From assembly GCA_019192545.1 (NCBI GenBank), contig JAHCMI010000082.1, positions 1 through 40,374 of the forward strand: a stretch of DNA of 40,374 nucleotides, in the 5' to 3' direction. The translations under genes and the position numbers were made by a program. Each line of letters starts with the position of its first letter. Position 1 is the stretch's first letter. The notes under the pieces were generated by a model. That model saw only the letters and a list, made by a program, of their open reading frames with translations, made no database searches and had not been told where the DNA came from. Source of the stretch: Rivularia sp. MS3. GTDB taxonomy: Bacteria; Cyanobacteriota; Cyanobacteriia; Cyanobacteriales; Nostocaceae. Shown here piece after piece: positions 6,880 through 25,066 of the stretch.

Positions 6880-7080
6880 TTAAAATAGCAGAAGTTGAAA
6901 ATAATTTTGTTCCGTTTCTTCGCTAAGAAAGTTGCGCTCCGTTTCAACATTATTGCCATCAAATTCTTTTAATTTGTATGCAACAGTTGAACCGAGAATA
7001 GTCACATTCAACAATTCTTGCCTTTGTTTTAAGGAAGATAAAAATGATAATAAGGCAGATTTTGCTAAGAAGGCTGTAGT
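6880..7080 (-). pseudogene. Possible gene remnant without ATG in the 6564-7064 gap
   Basis: Reading the minus strand from 7080 to the stop at 6880-6882 gives 66 codons that look protein-like (for example LKQRQELLNVTILGSTVAYK and then ERNFLSEETEQNYFQLLLF). The only candidate starts are TTG or GTG near 7005. It overlaps the 3' end of the SLOG-phosphorylase gene in another frame. It could be a remnant of a gene or chance. The stretch 6711-6879 shows only a short repeat GATGT-aggggg-ACATC near 6750. Confidence 0.2.
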
Positions 7081-9008
7081 TTAGCTTGTACAAATTCCAA
7101 ATGTTTGATGATTGCTAGCTCTAAAACGGGGTCATCAATAATATTACAAGTGGCAATAGCAAACTCAAAGAGAAAGGTAGCTTCTTGAAACTGACTTTTT
7201 TTAGCTCTTTTCTCACCTTCATTCCATATAAAATGAATGAAGCTAGTTACTTCTTGATGAGTTGTCAATGAACTAACTATTTTTTCAGGTGTAAGCGTTC
7301 TTAGTTTTTCGATAATGTCCGGAGTGTTTTCTTCGGGAGAGCTTGAGTTATTGTATGATTCTTGTTGCTTAAAATGCGAATTTACCTGAGTAATTGCTTC
7401 TCGACTCCAGGTATGTTCGGCATCTTTCTTGGCAGTTATTCTGCCGCTTATATTGTCTAGGTTAAAATTTGCTAAAACCTGGAAAGCAAAAGCACTTGCA
7501 TTACGTGCAGCTATTTCTTGAGAGCCAGCAGCGTCGGCTTCGCTTTTACCATCGATAAGGTCAGAAATTCCACGAACAATGAGCGCTGATACTTGTGGAT
7601 TCGCATGAGCCGCTTGAAGTAAGCCCCGTCCTTCCATTTCTACTGCGATCGCATCACCATAGTTCGATTTGAGAAACTGGTAAGTGCTTGAGGAGGTATC
7701 AGCTACGACTTTTTCACCAGCGGCTATAGGTGCAACGAATACGCGGGGTTTCGGAGTTGGAACAGGTAAGGTTAACCTTTGCAGCCAGTCTGGTTTTCTC
7801 GCCTCAGCCTTAGCTCGCTGTATCAATTTGTAAGCGGATTGCCCGACATCAGGTCTGGGTTTAAATTCAATTTCTGCCTTACCCGACTCATAGCCATACA
7901 CTTTTGTTGCAACTACCACGTCACCAAGAGCAACATCTTTGATACCACCTGCGACTCCAACAAAAAGTATAACAAGGGGATTAAAGTGGGCTATGGCTCG
8001 TTCCGCTTCCATTGCAGCAGTTAAATTTCCTGCACCAATATCACCAATTAATACATCCCAAACTTTACCGGAGGCGTTAAATTTGCCTCGTTCGTAAATC
8101 ATTCCCTGGGGATGCTCCTCTTCTTGGGGGTCGGCAAGATGGGCACGAACAGCTTCAAACTCTACAGGAATAGCAGTGAGTATAATCGCACGAGGTAAAT
8201 TTTGACCTTGTGGTCTCAAGTTCATTTTTCGGTTGTTGTTTGTGAAAGGTTCAAGCTGCTTGCGAATTGGATTTGGCTCCAATGCTTTGATTAGTTTTAA
8301 TATAGCTTGTACTACTTCCTTGATGGGTCTTTTACCTTGACGAGTTGTTAAACGATTTACTAAGCTCCCCGCTGCACTACCATCATAAATACGGATGAAA
8401 CGATGAGGTTCCGCAAGCATTTCCTTCGCTAAGCGTGGCGCTCCCCCACTTCCATCATTACAACTACTACCAATTTCGAGGTCAAGAGCAATAACTGGTT
8501 TGCCATTTTCTATGTATAGGTCTTCTGCCAGTGCTTCGACTCCCTCACCTCCACTAATAACGATAAGGATATCTCCTCGTGATGCTTGAAGTTCCCGGTA
8601 AGCTCCCCCTGATGCCCGACCTGGCTTAAGATAATTGATTTCAATAACATTATTATCTAGGAAAGATTCCCATAAATTGCGTCTGTGTTCGGGAATTTGC
8701 TGTTCTGTTTTACTTTTTCCAACTGTGTAAATCAGTGGTTCTGGAAAATCGGAGGTACTGACCAACCCCTGCTGCAAACAGTCGTGTATGGTACTAAGTA
8801 TAGTCCAGTCAAAAATAATTGACGGTGAGTTACAATCATTTTCTATTGAAAGAGGTTCTTTGCCAATGCCAGTAACAAACATTGCTCCCTCTACTATCAG
8901 ATTCCTTACCAGTTCCGCAGCCAAATCATGGGCATAACGAAGAAGGTCATGGTCAGTATTAGGGTCAGCGCTACCTGCAATGTGGACTCGCAATTGCTTT
9001 ATATCCAT
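7065..9008 (-). CDS. SLOG-like sensor fused to a nucleoside phosphorylase/nucleosidase domain (candidate CBASS effector)
   Basis: 647 aa using the ATG at 9008 (a TTG at 9083 would add 25 residues that look non-conserved). Residues 5-250 look like a SLOG (Rossmann-like nucleotide sensor) domain: RVHIAGSADPN at the first strand and RGDILIVISGGEGVEAL around residue 145-160. Residues 273-515 are a PNP/UDP phosphorylase-superfamily domain (AIILTAIPVEFEAVRAHL, VGVAGGIKD, VEMEG at 456-460, RGISDLID with the likely catalytic Asp at 483), related to MTA/SAH nucleosidase. The last ~100 residues are helical. Phosphorylase-type domains are known effectors in prokaryotic immune systems, and SLOG domains bind nucleotide signals in Thoeris ThsA. 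Next to a CD-NTase operon, a signal-activated nucleoside-cleaving effector is a reasonable inference. It is divergent from the two-TM gene. Confidence 0.75.
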   Translation of the reverse strand: MDIKQLRVHIAGSADPNTDHDLLRYAHDLAAELVRNLIVEGAMFVTGIGKEPLSIENDCNSPSIIFDWTILSTIHDCLQQGLVSTSDFPEPLIYTVGKSKTEQQIPEHRRNLWESFLDNNVIEINYLKPGRASGGAYRELQASRGDILIVISGGEGVEALAEDLYIENGKPVIALDLEIGSSCNDGSGGAPRLAKEMLAEPHRFIRIYDGSAAGSLVNRLTTRQGKRPIKEVVQAILKLIKALEPNPIRKQLEPFTNNNRKMNLRPQGQNLPRAIILTAIPVEFEAVRAHLADPQEEEHPQGMIYERGKFNASGKVWDVLIGDIGAGNLTAAMEAERAIAHFNPLVILFVGVAGGIKDVALGDVVVATKVYGYESGKAEIEFKPRPDVGQSAYKLIQRAKAEARKPDWLQRLTLPVPTPKPRVFVAPIAAGEKVVADTSSSTYQFLKSNYGDAIAVEMEGRGLLQAAHANPQVSALIVRGISDLIDGKSEADAAGSQEIAARNASAFAFQVLANFNLDNISGRITAKKDAEHTWSREAITQVNSHFKQQESYNNSSSPEENTPDIIEKLRTLTPEKIVSSLTTHQEVTSFIHFIWNEGEKRAKKSQFQEATFLFEFAIATCNIIDDPVLELAIIKHLEFVQAKLQPS

Positions 9009-9020
9009 ACGTACTAATGT

Positions 9021-9055
9021 ATTATACTGAGTATAATAATTTAACAAACTTGTTA
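9021..9055. promoter_or_regulatory. Divergent promoter region with two palindromes
   Basis: ATTATACT-g-AGTATAAT (9021-9037) is a perfect 8-bp inverted repeat that contains a TATAAT -10 box on each strand (9032-9037 plus; 9026-9021 minus). Next to it is TAACAA-ac-TTGTTA (9042-9055). The minus promoter would give a leader of only a few bases before the ATG at 9008; the plus promoter about 40 bases before the ATG at 9087. The palindromes could be operators that co-regulate both genes. Confidence 0.5.
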
Positions 9056-9086
9056 GACTAGCGGCAATAGCATCTAAAAACAAAAA

Positions 9087-9926
9087 ATGCCAAATCAGTC
9101 AAGACAAGATTTTAAAAGTCCATTGAAAAAACTTCTAGGCAGGTACTATGGGCTTGCAGGGGTAATCGTTTTTCTTTTAGGTGTTTTACTCAGATTAGTA
9201 GCTTTGGGTAAAACGGGATTTGTTTGGGATGCGACTAAAGATATTGGTACGTTTTTGGCTGTTGCAGTTGCCATACCATTTTTGTACGAAAAATTGATTA
9301 AATCTGAAGAACGTCAACTTTTTTTAACAGAACTCGAAGAATTAATAGATAATAAATTTCCTAATTACAAACCTGGCTTGAAGTTATATGAAGACGGTAG
9401 ACCCAGTATTTCTGATAAAGTAGATATACTTTTGACTGCCAAATTCGAGGTAGTTAACTTAGGAATTGCACATCGTTCTTTTGTTGGATATTTTGAGCAG
9501 AGACCTGCTCGTGAATTCAAAGAACCTATTTTTAAATTGTTAGAAAAAGGGGTTGTATTTAAATATATTTTTCTAGACCCTGATTCTGAAATCGCTAAAC
9601 AATATGCTCAAGATAGAGGAGAATCAGAACTTATCAACCGCATCAAAACATCTCTTAATGCCGTAAAAACGCTGAAATCTGAATTTGATAAATTAGGGCT
9701 ACCAGGTAAATTCGAGATATATATTTCTTCAAATTTACCTTATATGTCTGCTACTTGTGTTGATGGAAATGAATTAAATGGTCGGATGTTAATCTCTCCT
9801 TATTTACATGGAATTAAAAGAGCCTCTGTGCCACATTTAGATATTTCAAAATTAGAACATCAAATTATGTTTGAAACCTATTTAAAATCGATTAAAGAAG
9901 TATTAAATAATTCCCGCAAAGTTTAA
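9087..9926 (+). CDS. Two-TM protein with C-terminal soluble domain (candidate membrane effector)
   Basis: 279 aa, ATG at 9087. Two hydrophobic segments near the N-terminus (YGLAGVIVFLLGVLLRLVAL at about 23-42 and DIGTFLAVAVAIPFLYEKLI at about 52-71) are followed by a ~200-residue cytoplasmic domain with strands and helices (KFEVVNLGIAHRSFVGYFEQ, FKYIFLDPDSE, GRMLISPYLHG). The last motif and overall spacing resemble a DUF5919-like, PLD-fold-like domain seen behind HTH domains in regulators, but I see no HxK catalytic motif. Two-TM proteins are a common class of CBASS effector (membrane disruption). The gene is divergent from the SLOG-phosphorylase gene and convergent with the CD-NTase gene, so either it or its neighbour may be the CBASS effector. 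Function is inferred from context only. Confidence 0.6.
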   Translation: MPNQSRQDFKSPLKKLLGRYYGLAGVIVFLLGVLLRLVALGKTGFVWDATKDIGTFLAVAVAIPFLYEKLIKSEERQLFLTELEELIDNKFPNYKPGLKLYEDGRPSISDKVDILLTAKFEVVNLGIAHRSFVGYFEQRPAREFKEPIFKLLEKGVVFKYIFLDPDSEIAKQYAQDRGESELINRIKTSLNAVKTLKSEFDKLGLPGKFEIYISSNLPYMSATCVDGNELNGRMLISPYLHGIKRASVPHLDISKLEHQIMFETYLKSIKEVLNNSRKV

Positions 9927-9986: not shown

Positions 9987-10010
9987 AATAGTTAGTAATT
10001 ACTAACTATT
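9987..10010. terminator. 24-bp perfect palindrome between convergent genes
   Basis: AATAGTTAGTAA (9987-9998) is followed directly by its exact reverse complement (9999-10010). It sits between the two-TM gene and the CD-NTase gene and overlaps the CD-NTase stop codon (10006-10008). Position suggests a bidirectional terminator; there is no loop and no T tract, so a protein binding site is an alternative. Confidence 0.5.
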
Positions 10011-10944
10011 CCTCAAACCATTCTTGCCATTTTGTCAGTGACTTTAAGTTATCGCTGCTTTCCATTTGTTTTGTTAGTCTTCCTAAGAATTTTGATATCT
10101 TGACTCTATCCGGACTATCTTTTACTCCTAAGTAGTCATCTACGTGCAGTGATTGCCCAGTTTTATCTTGAATTGGTGACTTAACTAAATTAGTAGCCTC
10201 GCGGCAAAAATGTGTCAGCATATCTTTATAAGTTCTACTTCCCTGGTAATTTTTAAAGGCTTCAATTGCCATTGATTCTGCATGATAGCCAGATATTTTT
10301 AAGCCTTTAGGTATTGTTTTATCAATCATAGGTTTAAAAAGTTTGATTGTTGGCACAACTTTACCAGACTGTGCTTTATTTACAGCAGTTAGCTTGCGAG
10401 CAAAGGATTCAGGACGGACTACTTTACTCCATTTACCTTCTTCTGGATTAGCAATCCTAAAACCACTTGCAGTTTTTATAGCTGGTAACATTTGGATTTC
10501 TTGTCCATCTGAATAACGGATTGTTACTGCCAATTTACCTACAGAGACATCGGTGTTAGGAAGTCGTTGTTTAATTCGCTGTTCAAAGTGATTTAATACT
10601 TCTTGAGGAGATTTGTTTTCTAATGATGTATTGTTTACTAATACTAGTGTATCCACATCACTCAAACCATTGATAAATGTATTTTTACGAATTGAACCAC
10701 CAAATAATAGGTCAACGCTATTTTCTATTTCTCGCTCAATAGCTTCTTTGAGAACATTTAAATGTTTTTGAGTAGCTTCTATATCTCGTGCATTAAATCC
10801 CTTTAAGGCATTTTGTAATAAGTCATTAACTTCTGAATTGTAAGAAGACCCTTCCGTGCGTTCTGTTGCACGTCGGATTAATTCATTAATATCATTTGAA
10901 GAACTACCCGAAGACCAGCTAGAACCTCCTCCACTACCACCCAT
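10006..10944 (-). CDS. CD-NTase (cGAS/DncV-like nucleotidyltransferase) of type IV CBASS, with a Gly-rich N-terminus
   Basis: 312 aa, ATG at 10944. The nucleotidyltransferase signature is FGGSIRKNTF at 81-90 and DVD at 96-98 (GLSDVDTLVLV); the third strand reads GQEIQMLPAIK at 147-157, where the usual third acidic position (three before Pro) is Gln151, with Glu149 two residues earlier. The rest matches the helical CD-NTase core. The protein makes a cyclic nucleotide signal on phage infection in CBASS. The first 16 residues (MGGSGGGSSWSSGSSS) are a flexible Gly/Ser tail starting with Gly after Met. In type IV CBASS a QueC-like partner is, as I recall from recent work, able to attach a deazaguanine to the CD-NTase N-terminal Gly; this tail fits that. 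It is the last gene of the QueC-TGT-CD-NTase operon, five bases after the TGT-like gene. Confidence 0.85.
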   Translation of the reverse strand: MGGSGGGSSWSSGSSSNDINELIRRATERTEGSSYNSEVNDLLQNALKGFNARDIEATQKHLNVLKEAIEREIENSVDLLFGGSIRKNTFINGLSDVDTLVLVNNTSLENKSPQEVLNHFEQRIKQRLPNTDVSVGKLAVTIRYSDGQEIQMLPAIKTASGFRIANPEEGKWSKVVRPESFARKLTAVNKAQSGKVVPTIKLFKPMIDKTIPKGLKISGYHAESMAIEAFKNYQGSRTYKDMLTHFCREATNLVKSPIQDKTGQSLHVDDYLGVKDSPDRVKISKFLGRLTKQMESSDNLKSLTKWQEWFEE

Positions 10945-10949
10945 AATTA

Positions 10950-11948
10950 TTACTCCACTATTCTTATTTCTGCGTCTTCTAATAACTTAAATACTTGTGG
11001 CATAATTTTATTCCAAGCAGAAAATTCTCTTATTAGTTTTGTGTCACAAAATCTATGCATCGCATGAGATAAAGAACTAAGACTTTGCAGGTTATTGATG
11101 CTATAAAGTTGATTTAGCTCTTTGTCAGTATAATTCCAGTGGGCTTGCATAAGTGCTGCGGTTGATGGATATAAAGTAAGACCTTCCACAAAAGCGTAGC
11201 GCAGCCAAGCAAGTCCATCAAATATATCAGCTCCACAAAGAAAGTATGAAATCATTAGAAATGGGTCTAAGCATCCTAAAATATGAATTGGAATTTGAAT
11301 ATTTTGTTCATTTAGGGTGGAGCGAATTTTAAAAATATTACGACATCTTTCCAGTATAGAACTGCCAAGTTCTTTCTCTGTTATGCCCAGTATAGAAAAT
11401 GATGTTAAATGATGTGCGTGTGCTAGTAAACTTTCTATGTTTATAATTTGAGATTCTAGTGTTTCTGGTTTATACAAAAAATTGGAAGCATAATTTGGAT
11501 ATTGTTGAAAAAAATATTTTGCAATCTCTATTTGATTAAGAGTTGATTCATAGTTATTTAAATCATCATAACTAATTAAAACTAATTGAGATAAATCTTG
11601 TAAATTATCAACAACATTTTTATGTGATTCTTTAGACCAAAGTTGAATATTGTAATTATCTCTAAGCGCGTAACCATCATCCGAATTTACAGATGATTTA
11701 ATTGGTTTTGTCTCATATCCACCACTATCGATAAAAATAATATTAGATTCATAAATATCTACATTTTTTAGTTCGTAGTATATATCATAGGCGCTGATAA
11801 GAGAAATATCGGAAATATAATCTTTGGTTAATTCATAAATGTTTCTAACTTCAGGAAATCCCCGGCTGGAAAATGATGGAATTATCAGAGGGGTAGAAAC
11901 ATCAATAACAGAAATTTGACGTGAAGAACAGATTTCAGTAATTTTCAT
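10950..11948 (-). CDS. cap10: TGT-like tRNA-guanine transglycosylase homologue (Cap10-like) of type IV CBASS
   Basis: 332 aa, ATG at 11948, overlapping the end of the QueC-like gene by 14 bases. The TGT substrate-pocket motif DSGG is present (FIDSGGYE, 73-79; bona fide TGT has TDSGGFQ). HILGCLDPFLMISYFLCGAD at 222-241 then IFDGLAWLR matches the HLMGVG...GVDMFDCVLPTR region with the nucleophile Asp at 244. The Zn-binding CxCxxC motif of tRNA TGTs is not visible, so normal tRNA binding is unlikely. Genuine TGT exchanges guanine for a 7-deazaguanine base in tRNA; in type IV CBASS the Cap10 homologue acts with the QueC-like protein, its exact role being uncertain. The gene is longer than a TGT catalytic core minus its Zn site would suggest, and is more AT-rich than its neighbours. 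Confidence 0.75.
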   Translation of the reverse strand: MKITEICSSRQISVIDVSTPLIIPSFSSRGFPEVRNIYELTKDYISDISLISAYDIYYELKNVDIYESNIIFIDSGGYETKPIKSSVNSDDGYALRDNYNIQLWSKESHKNVVDNLQDLSQLVLISYDDLNNYESTLNQIEIAKYFFQQYPNYASNFLYKPETLESQIINIESLLAHAHHLTSFSILGITEKELGSSILERCRNIFKIRSTLNEQNIQIPIHILGCLDPFLMISYFLCGADIFDGLAWLRYAFVEGLTLYPSTAALMQAHWNYTDKELNQLYSINNLQSLSSLSHAMHRFCDTKLIREFSAWNKIMPQVFKLLEDAEIRIVE

Positions 11949-12519
11949 CCCATTCTTTCCTATCTAAACATGATGGGCATTCTCCACAGGGAATATCACC
12001 GCGACGTTCACAACTAAACGTCAGGTTTATAGGAACTTTAGCTAGTTTGCAATATTCAAAAACGTCTTTTTTGGTAAACTCTACAAATGGAGCTTCTATT
12101 TGAACTGAACCGGCAAAATAGCCATCAAAAATTCGTTGCATATCTTCTACAAATTTTTTAGAACAATCATAATAAGGTGTTCCAGCATGGATACCAATAG
12201 CAAATCTGCCTTTCTTACTCGGAAGAATACTCGCTGCTGAAAACAGTAAGGTTGCATTACGACAGTGATATTCTCCTTGAGTGCAAGCGATTTGCAACCC
12301 TAAATCAATAGTTGTGAGTGGAATGTTGTAGTGTTGAGTAAGTGCTAAAACTGCGCGACTTTCGCCTTCAAAACTGGGTTGATTGTAGTTAAAGTGGATA
12401 CCCCGCACAGACTCACAGCGTGAAAGGTAAAAAGCAATTAACGCAGTAGAATCGATACCTCCTCCGAGCAATAAATTTACTTGTGCATCCAACTGAAGCA
12501 TCAATACTAAGGCTCCCAT
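11935..12519 (-). CDS. cap9: QueC-like ATP-dependent enzyme (Cap9-like) of type IV CBASS
   Basis: 194 aa, ATG at 12519; an alternative ATG at 12501 would remove six residues. The PP-loop ATP-binding motif is LLGGGIDST (17-25; canonical QueC has SGGxDS). FNYNQPSFEGESRAVLALTQ (43-62) is close to the QueC YGQRHxxE region. The Zn site is Cys170, 178, 181 and 184 (SCERRGDIPCGECPSCLDR). QueC converts 7-carboxy-7-deazaguanine to preQ0 in queuosine synthesis. No queD/E/F genes are nearby; the next genes are TGT-like and CD-NTase, the set defining type IV CBASS. A DNA-modification (dpd) or QatABCD role is less likely because their other genes are absent. It starts the operon; the upstream region has a weak TATAC -10-like sequence near 12530. 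Confidence 0.8.
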   Translation of the reverse strand: MGALVLMLQLDAQVNLLLGGGIDSTALIAFYLSRCESVRGIHFNYNQPSFEGESRAVLALTQHYNIPLTTIDLGLQIACTQGEYHCRNATLLFSAASILPSKKGRFAIGIHAGTPYYDCSKKFVEDMQRIFDGYFAGSVQIEAPFVEFTKKDVFEYCKLAKVPINLTFSCERRGDIPCGECPSCLDRKEWDENY

Positions 12520-13388: not shown

Positions 13389-16364
13389 TTAACCATGCCC
13401 TAGAAATTGCTGTAATCCTTCTAGATTTATTTGCTTGAGTAACTGCATTATACTGGCATCAAATGCCCGTTTAAACTCGGAATCTGAGGCATAGCGTTTG
13501 TATAAATCCAGTTCGCGTTTACGTTCTTTACTGATAGCTTGCTTAATTAATCCTTCTAATGCTAGACGGCGGTTTTGGGTATCTTGGTTGTTGACAACTT
13601 GGGTTTGGTAGTTGGGGTTGTCAATGATGTGTTTGGCGATATTAATGAATTTTACCCGTTGTTCTTGGGGTGTGGCATCCCAACCTGTAAAGAAGCGGTT
13701 ATTAAAGGCGTTGATAATATCATCTAAGGGGTCTTGTTGGGATGCTTCGCTGTGGTATCCCCGGACATTAGGGTTTTGGGGTGCAATTGTTGATACTTCG
13801 GTATCGAGTTCGATGGTATGGTTAAGTTGAACTCGCTCTATACCGTAGGTGGAAAGGTCTACGCTTTCTAGGAGTTGGTCTAGCTGGTCTTGGTGGGGGT
13901 TTCTGACTGTAAGTTTGGGGATGAGGAATTTCAGGAACCAGTACAGCATTTCCCATTGGATGTTGTTATAAGGGATAATACAGGCGACCTGACTATAAAT
14001 TTTGACAAACTGTTTAGCTTTAATTTTAAAGTCAATTTTTGCCTCGTCTTCCAGTTCTAATTCTACATTGAAACGATTGGCGGCGGTGTCGATGAGGGGG
14101 CTGAGTTCTTCTGCTTCTGCTTGGTTAAAGAATAGTTCGTTGAACTGTTGGACTTCCTGTAATTCGTAAAAACCCACGTCGTCTAGTTCTTCTTTCAGGT
14201 CGTGGAGGATGTTAACATCGGTAGGTTCGCCCAGGGATGTAGCGGTATAAAATGGGTCGAAGGCGGTTTTGATGTCGCTAACGGTGTTATAAAAGTCTAG
14301 TATAAAAGTGTCTTGTTTACCCATCTTCTGATTGCAACGATTGAGACGAGAGAGGGTTTGCACTGCTAAGACCGATTGCAGCTTTTTATCTACGTACATG
14401 GTATGTAGTAGGGGTTCGTCAAATCCGGTGAGGAATTTGTTTGCAACTACCAAGATTTTGTAATCATCTTGTTTGAACTTTTGGGGAATATCTTTACTGG
14501 GGAAACCGTTGATAATGTCTTCGGTGTACTCAATACCATCTACGGTCTTTTTACCAGAAAAGGCGACAATTGCTTTAAAGGGTAAATCCTTTTGGGTTAA
14601 TATCTCCCGGATAGCGAAGAAGTAGCGAATCGCAGCTTCAATATTACGGGTGACAACCATTGCTTTAGCTTTACCCTTGAGCTTTTTGGGTTTCCATACC
14701 TGGTCGATAAAATGTTTAACCATAATATCTGCTTTGGTAGCAATGGTTTGTTTGTGTCCTTCTACGTAATTTCTGAGTTTTTTCTGTGCTTTAGCTGTGT
14801 CAAAGATGGGATTATCTTGAATAGATTTTTGAATTTCGTAGTAGCTTTTGTAGGTGGTATAATTTGCTAAAACATCGAGAATAAAACCTTCTTCAATCGC
14901 CTGTTTCATGGAGTAGAGATGAAATGGTGTAAAATTACCATCCGGGGTTCTTTGACCAAATTTTTCCAAAGTGGCATTTTTCGGGGTAGCGGTAAAGGCA
15001 AAATAGGAAGCATTTTTACCCAATTTTCGTCCCGACATTGCCTTAAGAATCTTGTCCTGTAAATCTTCCGGTTCTTCCTCCTCTCCTTTCCCCAAAGTCA
15101 TATTCAGATTATCAGCAGCTTTACCACTTTGGGAAGAATGAGCTTCATCAATAATCACAGCAAAGGTGCGGTCGCTTAAATCTTCAATCCCATCAACTAT
15201 GAAGGGGAATTTCTGAATTGTGGTAATAATAATCTTTTTACCATTTTCCAGGGCGGTTTTTAGTTCTTGGGAACTGGTAGCATGGGCGAGGATATTTTTA
15301 ACTTGGGAGAAGTCTTTGATATTATTCTTGAGTTGTTTATCTAGAATGCGTCTATCGGTGACGACGACAACGGAATCAAATAGGGGAGTATCTGCACCTT
15401 GGGGGTAGAGTTCGATTAGTTGATATGCTGTCCAAGTGATGGAGTTAGATTTACCAGAACCTGCGGAATGTTGAATTAAATAAGTGTGTCCCGTACCATT
15501 TTTACCAGCATGGATGAGGAGTTTACGGACAACATCAAGTTGGTGATAGCGGGGGAAGTAGAGGTTTTTTTGGGTAAGGGGTGTTTTCGTGTCCCCAGGG
15601 ATGAGAATGGCGAATTGTTCAATAATGTTGGTGAAACTTTCCCGCTTCAAAATAGATTCCCACAGGTATGCAGATTTATGACCATTGGGGTTTGGTGGGT
15701 TTCCCTTGCCAAAATTAAAGCCTTGATTGAAAGGTAGGAAGTAAGTGTTTTTACTGGCTAACTTTGTGGTCATCCATACTTCATCGGTATCAACGGCGAA
15801 GTGAACTAGACAGCGAGCAAATTGCAGTAGGGGTTCCTGGGGATTGCGGTCTTCACGGTATTGTTTTTTAGCGTGGTATACCGTTTGACCAGACCAAGCA
15901 TTTTTTAATTCCATTGTCGCTATGGCTATCCCATTCAGGAATAACACGATATCAATGGATAACTTGGGTTCTGTTTGGGAGTAATGTAGCTGACGGGTAA
16001 CGGAGAAGATATTTTTTTGGAAATTTGCGGAAACAGCCGGATTATTATCGTTGTAGGGCAGACTGTAAAGTAAGGTGAGGTGAGCATCATCAATGGATAA
16101 TCCTTTTTTGAGGACAGAAAGAATACCATCTTTTTTAACTTTGCGGTGGAAGCGTTCTAAGATTAATCTTTGCCAGTTGGGATTGTCTTGGAGTTTGGCG
16201 AGTTCTTCCGGTTGGGTGGTGGTTAAAAAACGCCAGAATTTTTCTTTATCGATAGCGAATTCCCGGTCAAAGTCTGCGGGGTTCCCCTTTTCATAGCCAG
16301 CACGGTTAACGAGGGCGGTTTCGATGCAGTTTTCTAAGGCTTGCTCGTTGGTTTTGCTTACCAT
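13389..16364 (-). CDS. hsdR: Type I restriction enzyme, R subunit (HsdR)
   Basis: 991 aa. The N-terminal RecB-like nuclease site is visible: Asp138 in LSIDIVLFLNG and Glu152-x-Lys154 in TMELKNAW. The translocase has Walker A HSAGSGKS (299-306), DEAH box FAVIIDEAHSSQSG (406-409) and FAFTATPKN, with later SF2 motifs (TGFDEPLLHTMYVDK, QTLSRLNRC). HsdR pulls DNA through the bound complex using ATP and cleaves far from the recognition site when it meets hemi- or unmethylated DNA. It lies downstream of HsdM and HsdS on the same strand, separated from HsdS by a toxin-antitoxin pair. The end at 13389 is close to repeat copy A. Confidence 0.95.
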   Translation of the reverse strand: MVSKTNEQALENCIETALVNRAGYEKGNPADFDREFAIDKEKFWRFLTTTQPEELAKLQDNPNWQRLILERFHRKVKKDGILSVLKKGLSIDDAHLTLLYSLPYNDNNPAVSANFQKNIFSVTRQLHYSQTEPKLSIDIVLFLNGIAIATMELKNAWSGQTVYHAKKQYREDRNPQEPLLQFARCLVHFAVDTDEVWMTTKLASKNTYFLPFNQGFNFGKGNPPNPNGHKSAYLWESILKRESFTNIIEQFAILIPGDTKTPLTQKNLYFPRYHQLDVVRKLLIHAGKNGTGHTYLIQHSAGSGKSNSITWTAYQLIELYPQGADTPLFDSVVVVTDRRILDKQLKNNIKDFSQVKNILAHATSSQELKTALENGKKIIITTIQKFPFIVDGIEDLSDRTFAVIIDEAHSSQSGKAADNLNMTLGKGEEEEPEDLQDKILKAMSGRKLGKNASYFAFTATPKNATLEKFGQRTPDGNFTPFHLYSMKQAIEEGFILDVLANYTTYKSYYEIQKSIQDNPIFDTAKAQKKLRNYVEGHKQTIATKADIMVKHFIDQVWKPKKLKGKAKAMVVTRNIEAAIRYFFAIREILTQKDLPFKAIVAFSGKKTVDGIEYTEDIINGFPSKDIPQKFKQDDYKILVVANKFLTGFDEPLLHTMYVDKKLQSVLAVQTLSRLNRCNQKMGKQDTFILDFYNTVSDIKTAFDPFYTATSLGEPTDVNILHDLKEELDDVGFYELQEVQQFNELFFNQAEAEELSPLIDTAANRFNVELELEDEAKIDFKIKAKQFVKIYSQVACIIPYNNIQWEMLYWFLKFLIPKLTVRNPHQDQLDQLLESVDLSTYGIERVQLNHTIELDTEVSTIAPQNPNVRGYHSEASQQDPLDDIINAFNNRFFTGWDATPQEQRVKFINIAKHIIDNPNYQTQVVNNQDTQNRRLALEGLIKQAISKERKRELDLYKRYASDSEFKRAFDASIMQLLKQINLEGLQQFLGHG

Positions 16365-16415
16365 AGGGAGTCCGTCAGATTTTATACGAGGTTTTTTCCT
16401 ATGATACTCTCTTGA

Positions 16416-16685
16416 TTACAACTGTGATAGTAGCTTTTCATACCCTGTATGCGAGCCTACCCAAAACCAAATAACTGTATCTCCCTCCAACTGTCCAACG
16501 GCTCGATAGCTTTTGCTGACTCTGGCAGAATAAATAGGTAATTCTGGATGCACTTTTTTGAAACGTAAACTGGGATGATTGGGGTCTTGTTTAAATTGGC
16601 GATATGCTTGGCGAGTTTGTTCTCGCACATTTTCAGGTAAGTTGCCAAAAGCTTGGCGAAACTGGGAAGTAATGCGAGAATTCAC
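16416..16685 (-). CDS. RelE/ParE-superfamily toxin of a type II TA pair
   Basis: 89 aa. The start is GTG at 16685, whose GTG overlaps the antitoxin stop (GTGA), a typical coupled TA junction. The sequence LPENVREQTRQAYRQFKQDP at 17-36, then LRFKKVHPELPIYSARVSKS and YRAVGQLEGDTVIWFWVGSH, gives the helix-helix-strand order of RelE/ParE toxins, with a conserved YRA near residue 60 and HTGYEKLL near the end. Such toxins cut mRNA at the ribosome or poison gyrase; which applies here is unknown. The pair is placed between hsdS and hsdR, 51 bp upstream of hsdR, where it could stabilise the R-M locus. Confidence 0.8.
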   Translation of the reverse strand: MNSRITSQFRQAFGNLPENVREQTRQAYRQFKQDPNHPSLRFKKVHPELPIYSARVSKSYRAVGQLEGDTVIWFWVGSHTGYEKLLSQL

Positions 16686-16900
16686 AATGTATCTGGGTCT
16701 AATGGTTGAGTTTTTCCTGCGCGATATTCAGCCATCGCTTCGGCTGCTAGGAGAGCTAGTTTATCTGGAGAACGCTCAAAAGCTTCATCCCATCGCTGTT
16801 CATCTTCCAGTTCTTCCAAAATCATGGTAGCCATAGCATTTTGTTGACTGGCTGGTAAGCTTTTGAGTTTGGTAATCGCTTGTTCGAGTAATTCTGTCAT
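16682..16900 (-). CDS. Antitoxin of the TA pair inside the R-M locus
   Basis: 72 aa from the ATG at 16900 (a GTG at 16918 would add six residues). It is a small acidic helical protein (LEQAITKLKSLPASQQNAMA, LEELEDEQRWDEAF, ending LAAEAMAEYRAGKTQPLDPD) similar to cyanobacterial antitoxins placed upstream of RelE/ParE toxins. No DNA-binding fold is obvious. The gene overlaps the toxin by four bases. The 245 bp upstream to hsdS holds nothing recognised besides a likely promoter. Confidence 0.75.
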   Translation of the reverse strand: MTELLEQAITKLKSLPASQQNAMATMILEELEDEQRWDEAFERSPDKLALLAAEAMAEYRAGKTQPLDPDTL

Positions 16901-17145
16901 GGTGATTAATTTTCTCACAGAGTGTTCAGCGTCTTCATATTTAATTATGTAAGAGTCAGCAATTATTAGTCATTCGTCTTTAAAAAGTTAGGTGTTCTGC
17001 CCAGAATAGCTGAATATCATCGTTGATTGTAGTGTTTGTGGTGTTAGGGGTTGAGAATTGGTTAACTTATAGTATTTTTTTATGGTTTCTTAGATAATAT
17101 GACAATATCGGGTTAGTATATCCATCAGCTAAATTTTGCAATATT

Positions 17146-18453
17146 CTATATTTTAATTTTTCCGGTAACAGCTTGGGTAATAAATACTGCTTTTAATTCA
17201 TTCATTTTTTCTATTGCTTGATTAGCCTTATCTTCTAAAAATTGAAATTCGTTTATTTTATAAGATAAATATGAAATAATTTCTTTCTGTTCATCTAGGG
17301 GAGGAATTATAACTAGCCAAGACCGAATATGGTCTTGACTTACTTTTACCATAGTATGACTTGAACCTCTAGCACATATTTTAATTTGATATCTTGCTAT
17401 GGAACTTTGAAAAAAGTAAGCCATAAATTTATGCAGAATAACTTGTTGATTATATGTAAGACGGTAAATTAAATCAGAAATCATCACATTTTTCGTGACT
17501 TCTATATCTACATAACCAATATCTGCTACTAAGTCGGGTGTGTTACCTCTTGTCATAAGCAAGTCATCTTTTTTTACTTGATAACTTGAAACAAAATCCT
17601 TTTGAGGTATTATCTTATCTTCACCATCAATATAATTTCCATGCTTAATAGCACTAAGTTTGAGAACAAAAAAATCTTCATCTTCAGTTGAATTTGTAAT
17701 TGCTGGACTACTTCCCTGTTCCAATTTTTTCAGGAATCGACGATTATGAGCTAACTTCCAATGCTCAGGAATCTCCCCAATCCACTCAAACCCACTATTA
17801 CGCATGGGGACATTAGGGTTTAAACCCTTGGTGACAGCTTGATTGATGAGAATGGCTTTTTGTTCCTGTAGGAGTTCTATGAGACGCTGTTTTTTTGCGA
17901 TCGCTTCATCAATCTCAGCAGTTGTGCGATCTAAAAAAGCAACTATTCTATCCACTTCATCTTGAGGAGGTATCGGGGAATAAATTGTTTTAAAGTCCTC
18001 ATATCGTAAGCTGTTCATATCAGAACAGAGACCATATGAATGGCGATTTGCCTCACGAATAAATATCTCTGTACGATAAAGATAATGAAAATACTTAGAG
18101 TATTCTTTATTGCGCGTATTTAAGATAACATAGGCAGGACTAACAATACCATCATAATCTGACATTCCAATAGCACCTTGCCACATTCGCATTTTGTTGT
18201 AAGCTAAGTCTCCCTTGCAAACAACTTTATATTTAGATTTATCCTCATTGGAAGAATCTTTTTTAGTTAAAATTTCACTTTGACGAATAACACCTTGCTC
18301 AATAGTGACTGAAAGCAATTCCATCTCAGGTTGGTTAACTTCTTTGCGTTCATCAAATAGCCCAAGGTTACGTTGAACAATCCAATCTTCTGGAATTTCT
18401 CCCAACCAATCAACCCCACTATCCTTATAACTTTCATACTTAGGAAAAGCCAT
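17146..18453 (-). CDS. hsdS: Type I R-M specificity subunit (HsdS)
   Basis: 435 aa. There are two target-recognition domains: the first, residues ~1-175, and the second, residues ~225-400, each followed by the conserved helical spacer (IVAFLDRTTAEIDEAIAKKQ near 170-190 and IISYLSYKINEFQFLEDKAN in the C-terminus). Both halves begin with the same SGVDWLGEIPEDW / SGFEWIGEIPEHW motif, so the tandem repeat structure is intact. It reads the bipartite DNA target for methylation and cleavage. Its ATG overlaps the hsdM stop by one base (TAATG). The specificity cannot be read from sequence. Confidence 0.95.
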   Translation of the reverse strand: MAFPKYESYKDSGVDWLGEIPEDWIVQRNLGLFDERKEVNQPEMELLSVTIEQGVIRQSEILTKKDSSNEDKSKYKVVCKGDLAYNKMRMWQGAIGMSDYDGIVSPAYVILNTRNKEYSKYFHYLYRTEIFIREANRHSYGLCSDMNSLRYEDFKTIYSPIPPQDEVDRIVAFLDRTTAEIDEAIAKKQRLIELLQEQKAILINQAVTKGLNPNVPMRNSGFEWIGEIPEHWKLAHNRRFLKKLEQGSSPAITNSTEDEDFFVLKLSAIKHGNYIDGEDKIIPQKDFVSSYQVKKDDLLMTRGNTPDLVADIGYVDIEVTKNVMISDLIYRLTYNQQVILHKFMAYFFQSSIARYQIKICARGSSHTMVKVSQDHIRSWLVIIPPLDEQKEIISYLSYKINEFQFLEDKANQAIEKMNELKAVFITQAVTGKIKI

Positions 18454-20789
18454 TACTCAACCTCCCCAAAACTCACCAACTTCTTTAACAACCCTTCCGT
18501 CTCCTGTTCTAACTGTAAAATCTCTGCTGTAACTTCCTCCAAACTCCTCAAGGGTTTGTGCTGATAAAAATACTTATTAAAACTAATCTCATAACCAATC
18601 TGGGTTTTATCCACAGCTATCCATGCATCTTCCACATGGGGACGCACTTCCCGCACAAAATAATCATGTATCTGTTCCTTCAACTGTACATTTTCTGTAT
18701 CCCGTAACTCGCTATCGGGTTCATACTCTAGCCATTCCCCTTGCTTCTTCCCCACCCAGTAACCATAATCGGCTAAATTCTTTTCAGTGGTTCCCAACTT
18801 CGTTAACAAGTCGCTGAGTTGATTCTCTTTAAACTTGTGTACCTTCTTTACTACCTTAGCTGCATTCTCATCTCGCCAACTAACAGCATTACAAATTTGC
18901 TTTTTCTCACTCGCAGAAAGTTTAATTTTTAACTTTTTCAAAGTTGTATCTAGGGCTGTAGAAAACTGGTTAAAATCCATCCATAACTCTTCTCCCATCA
19001 CTTCCATAACTTTTTCCCCCACCTGCATTAATTCCCGTTGTTGCTGCCAAGTTTTGACATTAAATAGGGATTTCCTCAGTTTAGGCGAAAGATTAATTTC
19101 TTCCCGTTCCAGATAATCTTCTATGGCTTTTTTATGCACATCTAAACTGGCATAAATCTCCTCCCCCCACTGCTCGTAAACCCATGCCATCACCTCAGAC
19201 AAAGCGGGGAGATAACGCAAGGTAGATACCCCTTCCTCTGTAAATTGAGTCGCTAACCGTAAAGGGCGTTCCACCGTAATTTTATAAAAACCAAAATCTT
19301 GATTATCAAAAACCTTAGAAATACCTTGATTCGGCATTTCTAAATAAAGCCGAGTGATTTTCTCAATATGTTCCGGGGCAAACTCGCAATTCTTCTCCCC
19401 CAAATTCTTCCGCAATTTCTGATACAATTCAGAAGCATCAATTAATTGTACCTTACCCTTTCTTTCCGGCACTTTCTGATTAGAAAGAACCCAAATATAG
19501 GTAGTAATCCCCGTATTGTAAAACAGATTATTCGGCAATTGAACAATCGCTTCTAACCAGTCATTTTCAATAATGTAGCGACGAATATTACTTCCCCCCT
19601 TTCCCGCATCCCCTGTAAACAGAGAAGAACCATTGTGAACAGAAGCAATACGACTCCCCAAAGGACTTTCATCTAGCCGCTTCATCTTGTTTACCATATC
19701 CATTAAAAACAACAATTGCCCATCAGAAGAACGGGGAATTGCTGGCAAAATTTCTGATTCTCCCTGAAAATTTTGCAACGGAACCTCAAACCGAGGATCT
19801 AAAACTTCCTTCTTATCTAAAATAAACTTTTGGTCAGATTTATAAGACTTACCATAGGGCGGATTTGATAACATAAAATCAAACCGCATCCCGCTAAATT
19901 CATCCGTTGCTAATGTAGAACCAAACTTGATATTTTCCGGGTTATTCCCCTTAATCATCATGTCCGATTTACAAATTGCATAAGTCTCCCCGTTTACTTC
20001 CTTCCCATACAAATAAACTGCCGCTTTCGACTTAATTTCCCCTTCCCCATCGGTAATAAAATCCTGGGATTCTGTTAACATCCCCCCAGAACCGCAAGCC
20101 CCATCATATACAGTAATTACAGGGGGTAATTTATCCTTAACTGGGATAAACAACAAATGAGTCATTAACTTAATAACTTCCCTGGGGGTGAAGTGTTCCC
20201 CAGCTTCCTCATTATTCTCCTCATTAAACTTGCGGATTAACTCTTCAAATACATAACCCATCCCCAGGTTACTCAAACCTACCAGTTTCCGCCCATCCCG
20301 GTCTAAAGTATCATGGGGACTGAGGTTAATATCCGGTGATGTGAACTTCTCCAACACATCCAACAACACATCAGCCTGTACCATCCGCTTAATTTGGTTG
20401 CGTAACTCAAACTTATCGATAATTTCCTTCACATTGTCGCTGAAACCATCCAAATAAGCTTTAAAATTTGCCTCTAAAATCTGCCGATTATTGGAAGCCG
20501 TCTGTACCAACTTCTTTAACGTCCAATCAGATATATTGTAAAAAACATAACTAGAAGCTTCTCGCAATGCCACATAGTCAAGTACCGTAAACCCAGCCTC
20601 CTCACGTTGAAACCGCAACTCCTCCAACACTGCATCCTTCGTTTCTTCCAACAAACAATCCAGCCGTCGCAGAACAAACATAGGTAAAATTACATCTCGG
20701 TACTTACCCCGGACATAAACATCCCGCAAACAATCATCAGCAATTGACCAAATGAAAGAAACTATTTTATTTTGCTGCGATAAATCCAT
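18453..20789 (-). CDS. hsdM: Type I R-M methyltransferase subunit (HsdM)
   Basis: 778 aa. The N6-adenine methyltransferase motifs are TPREV (201-205), motif I DGACGSGG (229-236) and motif IV NPPY (309-312). HsdM is longer than E. coli HsdM (about 520 aa) because of a C-terminal extension after ~residue 560. It methylates adenine in the target chosen by HsdS and is needed for cleavage as well. It is the first gene of the hsdM-hsdS-(TA)-hsdR order on the minus strand. Upstream of the ATG lies AT-rich sequence with a TATATT-like -10. Confidence 0.95.
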   Translation of the reverse strand: MDLSQQNKIVSFIWSIADDCLRDVYVRGKYRDVILPMFVLRRLDCLLEETKDAVLEELRFQREEAGFTVLDYVALREASSYVFYNISDWTLKKLVQTASNNRQILEANFKAYLDGFSDNVKEIIDKFELRNQIKRMVQADVLLDVLEKFTSPDINLSPHDTLDRDGRKLVGLSNLGMGYVFEELIRKFNEENNEEAGEHFTPREVIKLMTHLLFIPVKDKLPPVITVYDGACGSGGMLTESQDFITDGEGEIKSKAAVYLYGKEVNGETYAICKSDMMIKGNNPENIKFGSTLATDEFSGMRFDFMLSNPPYGKSYKSDQKFILDKKEVLDPRFEVPLQNFQGESEILPAIPRSSDGQLLFLMDMVNKMKRLDESPLGSRIASVHNGSSLFTGDAGKGGSNIRRYIIENDWLEAIVQLPNNLFYNTGITTYIWVLSNQKVPERKGKVQLIDASELYQKLRKNLGEKNCEFAPEHIEKITRLYLEMPNQGISKVFDNQDFGFYKITVERPLRLATQFTEEGVSTLRYLPALSEVMAWVYEQWGEEIYASLDVHKKAIEDYLEREEINLSPKLRKSLFNVKTWQQQRELMQVGEKVMEVMGEELWMDFNQFSTALDTTLKKLKIKLSASEKKQICNAVSWRDENAAKVVKKVHKFKENQLSDLLTKLGTTEKNLADYGYWVGKKQGEWLEYEPDSELRDTENVQLKEQIHDYFVREVRPHVEDAWIAVDKTQIGYEISFNKYFYQHKPLRSLEEVTAEILQLEQETEGLLKKLVSFGEVE

Positions 20790-23226: not shown

Positions 23227-23811
23227 TTATTGCTTTATTACTGCTTGAGAAAGTTTTCTAACTGCACGAGCAATAAGGGGAGCCTTTTTTTCTAATCCTT
23301 GTAGAGTTAAATCTCCGTCCAAATATAATTGATACCAAGATTGACGCTGGCGCAGAACTCGTTCATCATCGCGTAACCGCAACCGCTCCAAGGTAAATTG
23401 TGCTTTTTGACGTTGTTGCGGGGGAACTTTATCTGTTAACACTAACTGTAAAGAAGGAAGCAGAATTTCAAACCAATCATCTCCCAAATCAAAAGGGTCA
23501 AGAACTTGGTCATCAAGCGTACCTTTACAACTATTAATCCAACCAGAAGCAAAGCGTAAATTACTCCATTCGTAAGCCAAATTACGATAATTATCGCGGC
23601 TAAGATAATGCTCTACTGTACCAACTGGTTCGTACATTACTGAGTAAGCACAAAGATTATTAAAACCATCGGCTAAATGACTTTTAAAAGGCGACCAATA
23701 GTCTCTAGTGCCTTTTTTTGGGTCGGGATTTTTTGCCAACCAAGCATTTCCTGGCTGTCGTACTTTCTTATCAAAATCTGGTGGTTCTGGTGGAGGTTCA
23801 AACGGTATCAT
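23227..23811 (-). CDS. ptuB: HNH nuclease, PtuB-like (Septu-type) partner of the ATPase
   Basis: 194 aa. The HNH region spans ~54-96: NNLCAYSVMYEP, GTVEHYLSRDN (His68), YEWSNLRFASGWINSCKG (Asn84, Asn93), a spacing typical of the PtuB/retron-Ec78 type of HNH proteins. Cys54 and Cys95 may bind zinc. It follows the ATPase gene by seven bases on the same strand, so the two are an operon. In Septu the ATPase senses phage activity and HNH cleaves DNA or tRNA. Subtype is not certain. Confidence 0.75.
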   Translation of the reverse strand: MIPFEPPPEPPDFDKKVRQPGNAWLAKNPDPKKGTRDYWSPFKSHLADGFNNLCAYSVMYEPVGTVEHYLSRDNYRNLAYEWSNLRFASGWINSCKGTLDDQVLDPFDLGDDWFEILLPSLQLVLTDKVPPQQRQKAQFTLERLRLRDDERVLRQRQSWYQLYLDGDLTLQGLEKKAPLIARAVRKLSQAVIKQ

Positions 23812-23818
23812 TTATATG

Positions 23819-25066
23819 TTAAACCCCCGATAACCCAGCAGAATTTCTCTTTTCTGATGTGACTATCCAACGCGGCCAAAATGGGTCATGTCCGGGTAAA
23901 AGTCTTTGTAATTCCTGATGAATTTGTGAGTGGGTTCTCAAGTTTTCTGGAAAAGCATTCAAATCGTCATCACGCATCCAAGCTTCTGCGGCTTCAATGG
24001 CATTTTCTGCTTCCTTGGAACGGGCTTGTTTGAGTCCAAAAATTTCTGATGTCAACCATCCAACTATATCTCCTTGTTTTGACCAAGGTATTTCATTAAG
24101 AGTGACTTCTCTATCAATCAAGTTAAATAAAAACAATCTATCTTCTTCCTGATTAAAATCTGGTTCTAAGGAAGCAAGAACTAGTGGAGAATGAGTAGTT
24201 ACTAAAGCCTGTATATTTATATTATTTTGTAAATCACGCGCCACATCTAAAATAGCTGGTAAGATTACCCTTTGCCACTGGGGATGTAAGTGAGATTCAA
24301 CTTCATCTATTAATAAAACTATTTGATTTATCGGCTTTTCTTGTCGTAATTCAGAAGCTTTTTTATGTTCGTACCAAGTCCATACTAATAGATAAGCTAG
24401 TCCCAAAATCCGCTTCATTCCGGCAGAAGCTTGAGTCACAGGAACGTTACCATAAGGTAGATTAACTGTTGGAATATCGCGCACGTCTTCCACAGAAACT
24501 CGCGTTGGTTCTCCAATCTCTATCCATTCCGAGGGATGAGGTGCAAGTTTTTTAATAACGTTAGAAAATAGTTTAAAGGGATATTTATTGGGTTGATTTT
24601 GCCATGTAACCCAATCTTGAATCAAACCGTTACAAACAACTTTCCCCTTTAAATTTAAACCATTCCAAAGCGTATCTGGATTAAAATTATAAGCATTATC
24701 TCGTTTACGTGCGGGGTCAAAAACAGAAAAACCCCCATCAACGCGCACGTAAATAATTACCTCTTTTAATTTTGGAGGCATTTTAAAATTACGCCATTGT
24801 TGTTCTGAGAAATCAAATTCACTTTGATATTCCTTTATATTTTCTTCGGTGCTAACTAAGCAGTTAATTTTTGGGTTTTCTTCTTTATTTCGTTGTGGAT
24901 AAGCAGGTTGTTCTACCCAGTTTCCACTAAGAACCCACCAAGCAACATCGAGTAAAAAACTTTTACCTAAACCATTATCGCCAGTAAATATATTGAGTCT
25001 ATCGGCAAATTCAACATCAAAATGGTCGGCTGGACCAACTTGCTGGAGGTGAATTTCTTTCAACAT
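23819..25066 (-). CDS. ptuA: AAA/ABC-type ATPase, PtuA-like (Septu-type)
   Basis: 415 aa, ATG at 25066. It has the RecF/SMC-like head: FTGDNGLGKSFLLD (Walker A, 29-36), TQASAGMKRILGLA (signature-like, 211-224), VLLIDEVESHLHP (Walker B, 250-262) and TTHSPLVLASL (His switch, 290-300). PtuA proteins form a complex with the HNH PtuB and cut nucleic acid when ATP is depleted, in Septu systems or retron-Ec78. No reverse transcriptase or msr-msd is seen nearby, so it is a stand-alone pair. OLD-family nucleases would have a TOPRIM domain here; none is seen. Confidence 0.75.
   Translation of the reverse strand: MLKEIHLQQVGPADHFDVEFADRLNIFTGDNGLGKSFLLDVAWWVLSGNWVEQPAYPQRNKEENPKINCLVSTEENIKEYQSEFDFSEQQWRNFKMPPKLKEVIIYVRVDGGFSVFDPARKRDNAYNFNPDTLWNGLNLKGKVVCNGLIQDWVTWQNQPNKYPFKLFSNVIKKLAPHPSEWIEIGEPTRVSVEDVRDIPTVNLPYGNVPVTQASAGMKRILGLAYLLVWTWYEHKKASELRQEKPINQIVLLIDEVESHLHPQWQRVILPAILDVARDLQNNINIQALVTTHSPLVLASLEPDFNQEEDRLFLFNLIDREVTLNEIPWSKQGDIVGWLTSEIFGLKQARSKEAENAIEAAEAWMRDDDLNAFPENLRTHSQIHQELQRLLPGHDPFWPRWIVTSEKRNSAGLSGV

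What the first reader, a model, noticed from the sequence alone, without database searches (positions are those of the whole stretch)
10006..12519. Type IV CBASS operon (QueC-like, TGT-like, CD-NTase) on a cyanobacterial plasmid
Seen: three overlapping or abutting minus-strand genes with PP-loop/CxxCxxC (QueC), DSGGYE (TGT) and GGS...DVD (CD-NTase) motifs. Known: this gene set is the signature of type IV CBASS (Cap9, Cap10, CD-NTase), a rare CBASS type. Inference: it is functional here and belongs to the mobile cargo. No OGG-like glycosylase (Cap11) is seen in the window.
Basis: partly seen in the sequence, partly recalled or inferred. Interest (0 to 1): 0.85.

Follow-up and report, generated by a model that had tools for sequence, protein, structure and literature searches.

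The report
Plasmid-borne type IV CBASS phage defence
A cyanobacterial plasmid-like contig carries a complete-looking anti-phage alarm system that probably attaches a guanine-like base to its own signal-making enzyme and then destroys the cell's ATP; it is a rare defence type, and its likely suicide gene lies just outside the stretch first noticed.

Summary
Three minus-strand genes at 12519-10006 encode a QueC-like protein, a TGT-like protein and a CD-NTase. They match the solved Cap9, Cap10 and CdnD of type IV CBASS (9ntn/9nto; E 1e-33, 2e-45, 2e-70), and the CD-NTase begins with the MGGS acceptor motif for deazaguanylation.

The effector was missed. It is probably the next same-strand gene, 9008-7065: Cap17-like sensor domain plus ATP-nucleosidase-type PNP domain. 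In a clade of seven cyanobacterial loci (window included) a Cap17-like gene follows the CD-NTase in all seven, while its second domain switches between PNP, CHAT and TIR. Lack of OGG (Cap11) is usual in this clade.

A rare opposite-strand membrane gene with DUF5919 (9087-9926) sits between CD-NTase and effector. The seven copies I found lie beside a PNP gene (four), a decayed effector start (one) or archaeal type IV operons (two). Its role is open.

Ten rhizobial-order loci pair Cap9-like, Cap10-like and OGG-like genes with no CD-NTase; in all ten the next gene starts MGGG, a ThsB-type TIR protein in eight. This suggests a portable modification module.

All function is inferred from homology.

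The parts
11935..12519 (-). Cap9 (QueC-like, predicted CD-NTase deazaguanylase); conserved start probably at 12501
   Evidence: PADLOC QueC 8e-80; Cap9 9nto_B E 1.3e-33; motifs; start codon context shared with L015-L017
10950..11948 (-). Cap10 (TGT-family protein; in the published system it binds the modified CD-NTase N-terminus)
   Evidence: PADLOC TGT 8e-119; Cap10 9ntn_A E 1.6e-45; DSGGYE and FDGLAWLR conserved
10006..10944 (-). CD-NTase (CdnD-like, CBASS_cyclase_b)
   Evidence: CdnD 9ntn_G E 2.3e-70; NF041117 305 bits over cut-off 200
10933..10944 (-). MGGS start of the CD-NTase: predicted acceptor glycine for the deazaguanine
   Evidence: sequence; motif described in PMC13279940; glycine start in 55 of 64 CD-NTase ORFs against 13 of 888 other genes
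7065..9008 (-). likely effector: Cap17-like N-terminal domain plus PNP (ATP-nucleosidase type) domain; the longest ORF starts at 9083 (TTG)
   Evidence: PF18178 2e-47 and PF01048 2e-26; PADLOC effector 1e-42; homologues after the CD-NTase in relatives
9087..9926 (+). DUF5919 protein with two N-terminal helices (likely membrane), opposite strand between CD-NTase and effector
   Evidence: PF19319 26.9 bits over cut-off 23.5; same arrangement in L014 and L016; dN/dS 0.14-0.16
9020..9038 (.). perfect palindrome TATTATACTGAGTATAATA just upstream of the effector start, operator-like; not seen in L014, L016 or L086

Best explanation
A type IV CBASS operon on a mobile plasmid-like contig. By homology, Cap9 uses ATP to attach 7-carboxy-7-deazaguanine to Gly2 of the CD-NTase (MGGS start), and Cap10 holds the modified N-terminus. 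When phage infects, the CD-NTase makes a cyclic oligonucleotide, which is sensed by the Cap17-like domain of the downstream effector. The fused PNP domain then splits the base off ATP/dATP and stops the cell before the phage can multiply. Shown here: gene content, intact frames, conserved motifs, synteny and purifying selection. Inferred from published work on relatives: deazaguanylation, signalling and ATP cleavage; that the Cap17-like domain is the sensor is my inference. The DUF5919 protein may belong to the PNP effector cassette as a partner or restraint, but its action is not known.
For: Sequence matches to solved Cap9, Cap10 and CdnD. MGGS start and Cap9 motifs. Fixed order Cap9-Cap10-CD-NTase on one strand in 61 of 61 loci that hold all three, from many phyla. 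In the supported clade of 7 (window, L014, L015, L016, L017, L019, L020; 99/94) a Cap17-like gene on the same strand follows the CD-NTase in 7 of 7; the gap is 6 bases in L015 and L017 and 127 in L020. Sisters L015 and L016 (100/97) are 87-90% alike in Cap9/Cap10/CD-NTase and 73% in the effector N-domain but 28% in the C-domain (CHAT against PNP), which is the mark of an exchangeable toxic domain. dN/dS 0.07-0.30 for the five genes. The host can probably make the precursor: a separate full-length QueC, QueD-type PTPS proteins and a QueE-like radical SAM protein.
Against: No experiment. In window, L014 and L016 (DUF5919) and in L019 (a 184-residue ORF) a reverse-strand gene separates CD-NTase and effector, so effector expression must be independent there. 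The Cap9 PP-loop serine is glycine here. The QueE match is below every curated cut-off (74 bits against 206). Cap17-like genes occur in only 14 of the 65 loci; SLATT is the commoner effector (47 of 65). Plasmid closure is not shown.
Confidence: 0.88

Rival explanations
1. The effector is the DUF5919 two-helix protein (a membrane counterpart of the SLATT protein of other type IV operons), and the PNP gene is a neighbour or a second effector.
For: It is the gene nearest to the CD-NTase; two N-terminal helices as in SLATT effectors; present beside type IV CBASS in window, L014, L016, L061, L062.
Against: Opposite strand in all five; in L061/L062 a SLATT gene is already present; the whole genomes of L015 and L017-L020 lack it; in G478 it stands divergent from a PNP gene with no CBASS gene on the 6-kb contig.
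Confidence: 0.1
2. The QueC-like and TGT-like genes are spare tRNA queuosine genes that lie beside an unrelated CD-NTase.
For: Family names and Pfam QueC hit.
Against: Below NCBIfam cut-offs for QueC (73.5 against 150.3) and TGT (16.4 against 47.6); far better matches to Cap9 and Cap10; the host has its own QueC at 262.6 bits; the trio is conserved across phyla.
Confidence: 0.03
3. The locus is a decayed or silent remnant.
For: Effector cut off from the operon by a reverse gene; PP-loop serine replaced; relatives show damage (L018 has broken Cap10 and CD-NTase frames; the Cap10 frame of L014 has a stop).
Against: All window frames open; catalytic motifs kept; dN/dS 0.07-0.30 against L014-L016, which are 68-86% identical (dS of Cap9 is near saturation); the GGGIDS loop is shared by six rows.
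Confidence: 0.08

Closest known systems
Type IV CBASS with solved Cap9/Cap10/CdnD (PDB 9ntn, 9nto; Wassarman et al. 2025, abstract of the preprint seen)
   Same: Cap9, Cap10 and CD-NTase sequences, glycine-rich start of the CD-NTase, FDGL.WLR and DSGGYE motifs in Cap10
   Different: 40% identity over the 257-residue Cap10 stretch. That stretch is found letter for letter in locus L046/L101, whose operon carries SLATT and OGG; the window lacks both and has a Cap17-like PNP gene
Calothrix MO_192.B10 (L014) and Nostoc NMS7 (L016) loci
   Same: Same five genes in the same order and orientation, including the reverse DUF5919 gene
   Different: Cap10 83% and 71% identical to the window; the Cap10 frame of L014 has an in-frame stop
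Cap17 CBASS ATP nucleosidase
   Same: PF18178 N-domain plus PNP_UDP_1 domain
   Different: Sits in a type IV locus; about 135 residues follow the PNP domain, not compared with Cap17 itself; activity untested
QatABCD (QatB-QatC)
   Same: QueC-family enzyme with a partner that starts MGTS (passages of PMC13279940)
   Different: Partner QatB is not a CD-NTase; QatC is larger, with a remodelled active site

Membership tests
type IV CBASS | QueC-like Cap9 with conserved motifs | tested here: met
   PP-loop is GGGIDS
type IV CBASS | TGT-like Cap10 | tested here: met
type IV CBASS | CD-NTase with nucleotidyltransferase motifs | tested here: met
   GGS, SDVD
type IV CBASS | CD-NTase starting MGGS-like (acceptor of the nucleobase) | tested here: met
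   control: 0 of 5 cyclases from stretches without a Cap9 or Cap10 match start so
type IV CBASS | OGG-like Cap11 (common accessory, not taken here as defining: 41 of 65 loci match the main OGG profile, 3 more a second one, 21 neither, some of these cut by contig ends) | tested here: not met
   absent from the host genome and from the genomes of L014, L015, L016, L017, L020, while both control genomes ring
type IV CBASS | effector linked to the CD-NTase | tested here: met
   Cap17-like gene; separated from the CD-NTase by a reverse gene in the window
type IV CBASS | deazaguanylation of the CD-NTase, signal synthesis, phage defence | not testable with these tools
   needs biochemistry and phage assays
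Cap17 ATP nucleosidase | Cap17-like N-domain fused to a PNP domain | tested here: met
   PF18178 161.9 bits, PF01048 93.2 bits; VEMEG and GISD align with VEMEA and AISD of a solved MTA/SAH nucleosidase
Cap17 ATP nucleosidase | cleavage of ATP and dATP | not testable with these tools
   needs an enzyme assay
canonical QueC / TGT (tRNA queuosine) | score above the curated NCBIfam cut-off | tested here: not met

The most novel reading that the evidence does not exclude
The Cap9-Cap10 pair is a portable machine that puts a deazaguanine on a glycine-rich N-terminus, and the CD-NTase is only one of its clients. In ten rhizobial-order loci without a CD-NTase match, the order Cap10 (fused to TIR in six), OGG, Cap9 is followed directly by a small protein that starts MGGG, a ThsB-type TIR protein in eight. 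This would be a Thoeris-like counterpart of type IV CBASS in which another kind of immune signal enzyme is modified in the same way. In the window itself, the DUF5919 membrane protein would be a new partner of PNP-type suicide effectors.
Probability: 0.5. Interest if true: 0.85.

Novelty: new variant of a known kind. Interest (0 to 1): 0.58.

Why it matters
Nucleobase-to-protein conjugation was described in 2025 for type IV CBASS (preprint abstract). This locus gives a cyanobacterial example from an OGG-less branch, shows that the effector's toxic domain is swapped while its N-domain stays, and points to an unstudied DUF5919 membrane protein found beside PNP effectors. The related CD-NTase-less loci make it directly testable whether protein deazaguanylation serves other immune signal enzymes.

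Tried and rejected
A first genome-contig scan with the single Cap10 protein found nothing; the second, with a three-row alignment, gave 68 loci. Viral contigs gave no relative of Cap10 or of the DUF5919 protein, and phages gave none of Cap10. One search was meant to look for OGG in the host genome but the accession proved to be a TGT model; one search used the right model but no control rang; one search added two genomes that hold it, and both rang.

The AlphaFold model of the DUF5919 protein is poor (mean pLDDT 52). Its Foldseek matches are to TrmB and phospholipase D-like folds, one of them below E 0.001. I treat a PLD-like fold as a lead only.

I expected the L077 MGGG protein to be a TIR domain. 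Its model (mean pLDDT 79, two rows) matches many Rossmann-like folds and Pfam gives no TIR, so I call it Rossmann-like only.

I first took the Nostoc pNPM2 copy of the DUF5919 gene (L083) as an independent link to a PNP-SAVED CBASS. The stretch upstream of it reads like a decayed effector start (judged by eye, 8 of about 20 residues), so that copy more likely came from a Cap17-like cassette and its present neighbours may be chance. Against a tight DUF5919-PNP pair: L019 has the PNP effector without DUF5919, the archaeal copies have SLATT and no PNP match was sought there, and the effector matches 77 plasmid records while DUF5919 matches one. The palindrome at 9020-9038 is not seen in L014, L016 or L086. 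Promoter and terminator scans gave no more than shuffles.

I considered that the lack of OGG shows decay; the tree shows a branch of 14 rows around the window (85/88, below the 95 mark) with no OGG match in any, though L021 and L067 are cut short.

Full report
What is there. The window holds three minus-strand genes: QueC-like (12519-11935), TGT-like (11948-10950) and CD-NTase (10944-10006). PADLOC names them QueC (8e-80), TGT (8e-119) and cyclase (1e-135); NCBIfam gives CBASS_cyclase_b at 305 bits, cut-off 200. Against PDB chains by sequence, the TGT-like protein matches one entry, Cap10 of 9ntn (1.6e-45); the CD-NTase matches one distinct sequence, CdnD of 9ntn/9nto (2.3e-70); the QueC-like protein matches Cap9 of 9nto (1.3e-33) far better than B. 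subtilis QueC (0.0018). Spare queuosine genes are unlikely: both proteins fall below the curated QueC and TGT cut-offs, and the host has its own QueC at 262.6 bits on another contig.

Published mechanism. I saw the abstract of PMC11996544, passages of PMC13279940, and the first of five parts plus passages of PMC13329287. They report that Cap9 conjugates 7-carboxy-7-deazaguanine to the N-terminal glycine of the CD-NTase, that its MGGS motif is required, and that Cap10 binds the modified N-terminus. Millman 2020 and the Science version of Wassarman et al. are not held. The window CD-NTase starts MGGSGGGSSW. The Cap9 motifs given in PMC13329287 are present in the window protein, except that the PP-loop reads GGGIDS; 6 of 67 Cap9 rows read so.

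Relatives. An alignment of three Cap10 sequences found 68 loci in genome contigs; with four plasmid loci and the window, 73 loci hold Cap10. Of these, 65 also hold a CD-NTase; 5 lack it and have another protein in its place; 3 end at a contig edge. L013, a CBASS locus without Cap9/Cap10, was kept as a control. In the 61 loci with all three genes, the order and strand are the same in 61. Among the 65, 47 have a SLATT-like two-helix gene, 41 a match to my main OGG profile (its member in L030 matches PADLOC OGG), 3 more a match to a second OGG profile, and 14 a gene with the Cap17-like N-domain (one, in L018, a fragment; one, in L045, upstream on the other strand). Four have neither SLATT nor Cap17-like gene in the stretch held. 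The CD-NTase starts with the glycine motif in 55 of 64 ORFs of 100 residues or more, against 13 of 888 other genes; the nine misses are the control L013, the frame L067, L027 (MGEGG), L048 (MGGTGG), L022, L071, L072, L075 (one residue before the glycines) and L054, which lacks it. Five cyclases from stretches without a Cap9 or Cap10 match begin otherwise (0 of 5). Type IV is rare: the TGT model PDLC00913 matches 1 of 292 cyanobacterial genomes, the host itself, although the genome scan found ten cyanobacterial loci.

The effector. Same strand, beyond the CD-NTase, lies 9008-7065: Cap17-like N-domain (PF18178, 2e-47) and PNP domain (PF01048, 2e-26). In the tree of 68 Cap10 rows, the window groups with L014 (100/99) inside a clade of seven cyanobacterial rows (99/94). 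All seven have a same-strand Cap17-like gene after the CD-NTase, and none has a SLATT or OGG match. The gap is 6 bases in L015 and L017 and 127 in L020; a reverse gene lies between in window, L014 and L016 (DUF5919) and in L019 (a 184-residue ORF). The C-domain differs: PNP in window, L014, L016 and L019; CHAT in L015 and L020; TIR in L017. Sisters L015 and L016 agree at 87-90% in Cap9, Cap10 and CD-NTase and 73% in the effector N-domain, but 28% in the C-domain. A review passage describes Cap17 as a CBASS effector degrading ATP and dATP (PMC12043709, passages). The window PNP keeps VEMEG and RGISD opposite VEMEA and RAISD of a solved MTA/SAH nucleosidase; that these hold catalytic acids is recalled.

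OGG. PADLOC's OGG model finds nothing in the host genome or in the genomes of L014, L015, L016, L017 and L020, while it rings in both genomes chosen as positive controls (L030, L034).

The DUF5919 gene. At 9087-9926, on the opposite strand between CD-NTase and effector, lies a 279-residue protein with two long N-terminal helices, probably membrane-spanning, and DUF5919. L014 and L016 have the same gene in the same place and direction; L061 and L062 (archaea, about 35% identical) have it on the opposite strand after SLATT. Elsewhere I found it in 1 of 292 cyanobacterial genomes by single protein, in 2 of 388 genomes of the order by profile (host and G478), and in 1 of 72,556 plasmids. In G478 it is divergent from a PNP gene 62% identical to the window's PNP domain, on a 6-kb contig where my profiles found no CBASS gene. 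In L083 it follows a CBASS operon with a PNP-SAVED protein, but its upstream stretch reads as a decayed effector start. The genomes of L015 and L017-L020 lack it. Seven copies in all: four beside PNP genes, one beside a decayed start, two beside archaeal type IV operons. Five of the seven were reached through the CBASS genes, so only G478 and L083 are independent. The host and G478 each have 2 PNP-domain matches, so chance adjacency is improbable, but L019 has the PNP effector without it, and many plasmid PNP relatives do too (77 records). The search term DUF5919 gave 0 papers in the held library.

Is it working? Frames are open, and dN/dS is 0.07-0.30: Cap9, Cap10 and CD-NTase against L014, L015 and L016; effector and DUF5919 against L014 and L016, DUF5919 also against L083 (Cap9 dS reaches 1.2). 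The host has QueD-type proteins and a QueE-like protein best matched by QueE models but below their cut-offs, so the precursor is probably made.

The CD-NTase-less module. In L010, L011, L012, L076, L077, L099, L100, L106, L107 and L108 the order is Cap10-like, OGG-like glycosylase, Cap9-like, then a small protein starting MGGG: 10 of 10 loci examined, with no CD-NTase match in any. Of 13 plasmid records with this Cap10 I looked at 6. The loci are not independent: L010, L011 and L099 are close, as are L012, L106, L107 and L108, so there are four distinct kinds. The small protein is ThsB-type TIR by Pfam in L011, L012 and L100; L010 and L099 are 97% and 86% identical to L011, L106 97% to L012, L107 identical to L106, and L108 identical over the 40 residues printed. 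L076 and L077 are different; L077 gave no TIR match. The Cap10 is fused to a TIR domain in L012 by Pfam and, by length, resemblance or annotation, in L010, L011, L099, L106 and L107; the L108 frame is shorter. A SLATT_3/SLATT_1 protein lies near in L011 and L012. In 397 genomes of the order, the profile matched 4: three hold this module and one (G864) ordinary type IV CBASS. The Cap9 of the five loci tested lacks the H....YxDC motif but keeps the others (the PP-loop of L100 was cut off by my slice there and is visible), so the base added may differ. My searches for this in print were (listings) and the finds; none showed it, and the library lacks most subscription papers.

Verdict. The finding is right: a type IV CBASS of an OGG-less cyanobacterial branch with a Cap17-like PNP effector, on a plasmid-like contig. 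New points are the effector assignment, the exchange of its toxic domain, the DUF5919 companion, and the TIR-linked sister module.

Noticed in passing
L010, L011, L012, L076, L077, L099, L100, L106, L107, L108: CD-NTase-less loci with Cap10-like, OGG-like and Cap9-like genes followed by a small MGGG protein (ThsB-type TIR in most); possible deazaguanylated TIR immune module.
   Followed up: partly
window 9087-9926 and L014, L016, L061, L062, L083, L086: Rare DUF5919 protein with two N-terminal helices that recurs beside PNP effectors and type IV CBASS operons.
   Followed up: partly
window CD-NTase residue 151: The position where other CD-NTases, as I recall, have a third metal-binding acid is glutamine in 60 of 61 type IV rows, and in the solved CdnD.
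   Followed up: no
window 13389-20789: A type I restriction-modification set (HsdR 991 aa, specificity 435 aa, methylase 778 aa) lies next to the CBASS operon: a small defence island.
   Followed up: no
window 9020-9038: Perfect 19-base palindrome TATTATACTGAGTATAATA between the divergent DUF5919 and effector genes; not seen in three relatives.
   Followed up: partly
L018 8001-9520: Brasilonema type IV locus with broken Cap10 and CD-NTase frames next to a Cap17-like fragment.
   Followed up: no
L019 2031-2585: A 184-residue reverse-strand ORF lies between CD-NTase and effector, where window, L014 and L016 have DUF5919; a relative follows SLATT in L022.
   Followed up: no
L083 6683-7000: Stretch with inverted repeats (seen by eye) and a decayed effector start upstream of the DUF5919 gene on Nostoc plasmid pNPM2.
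   Followed up: partly
window 23227-25066: AAA ATPase (AAA_21, 415 aa) with a 194-aa partner downstream, a possible further two-gene defence pair.
   Followed up: no
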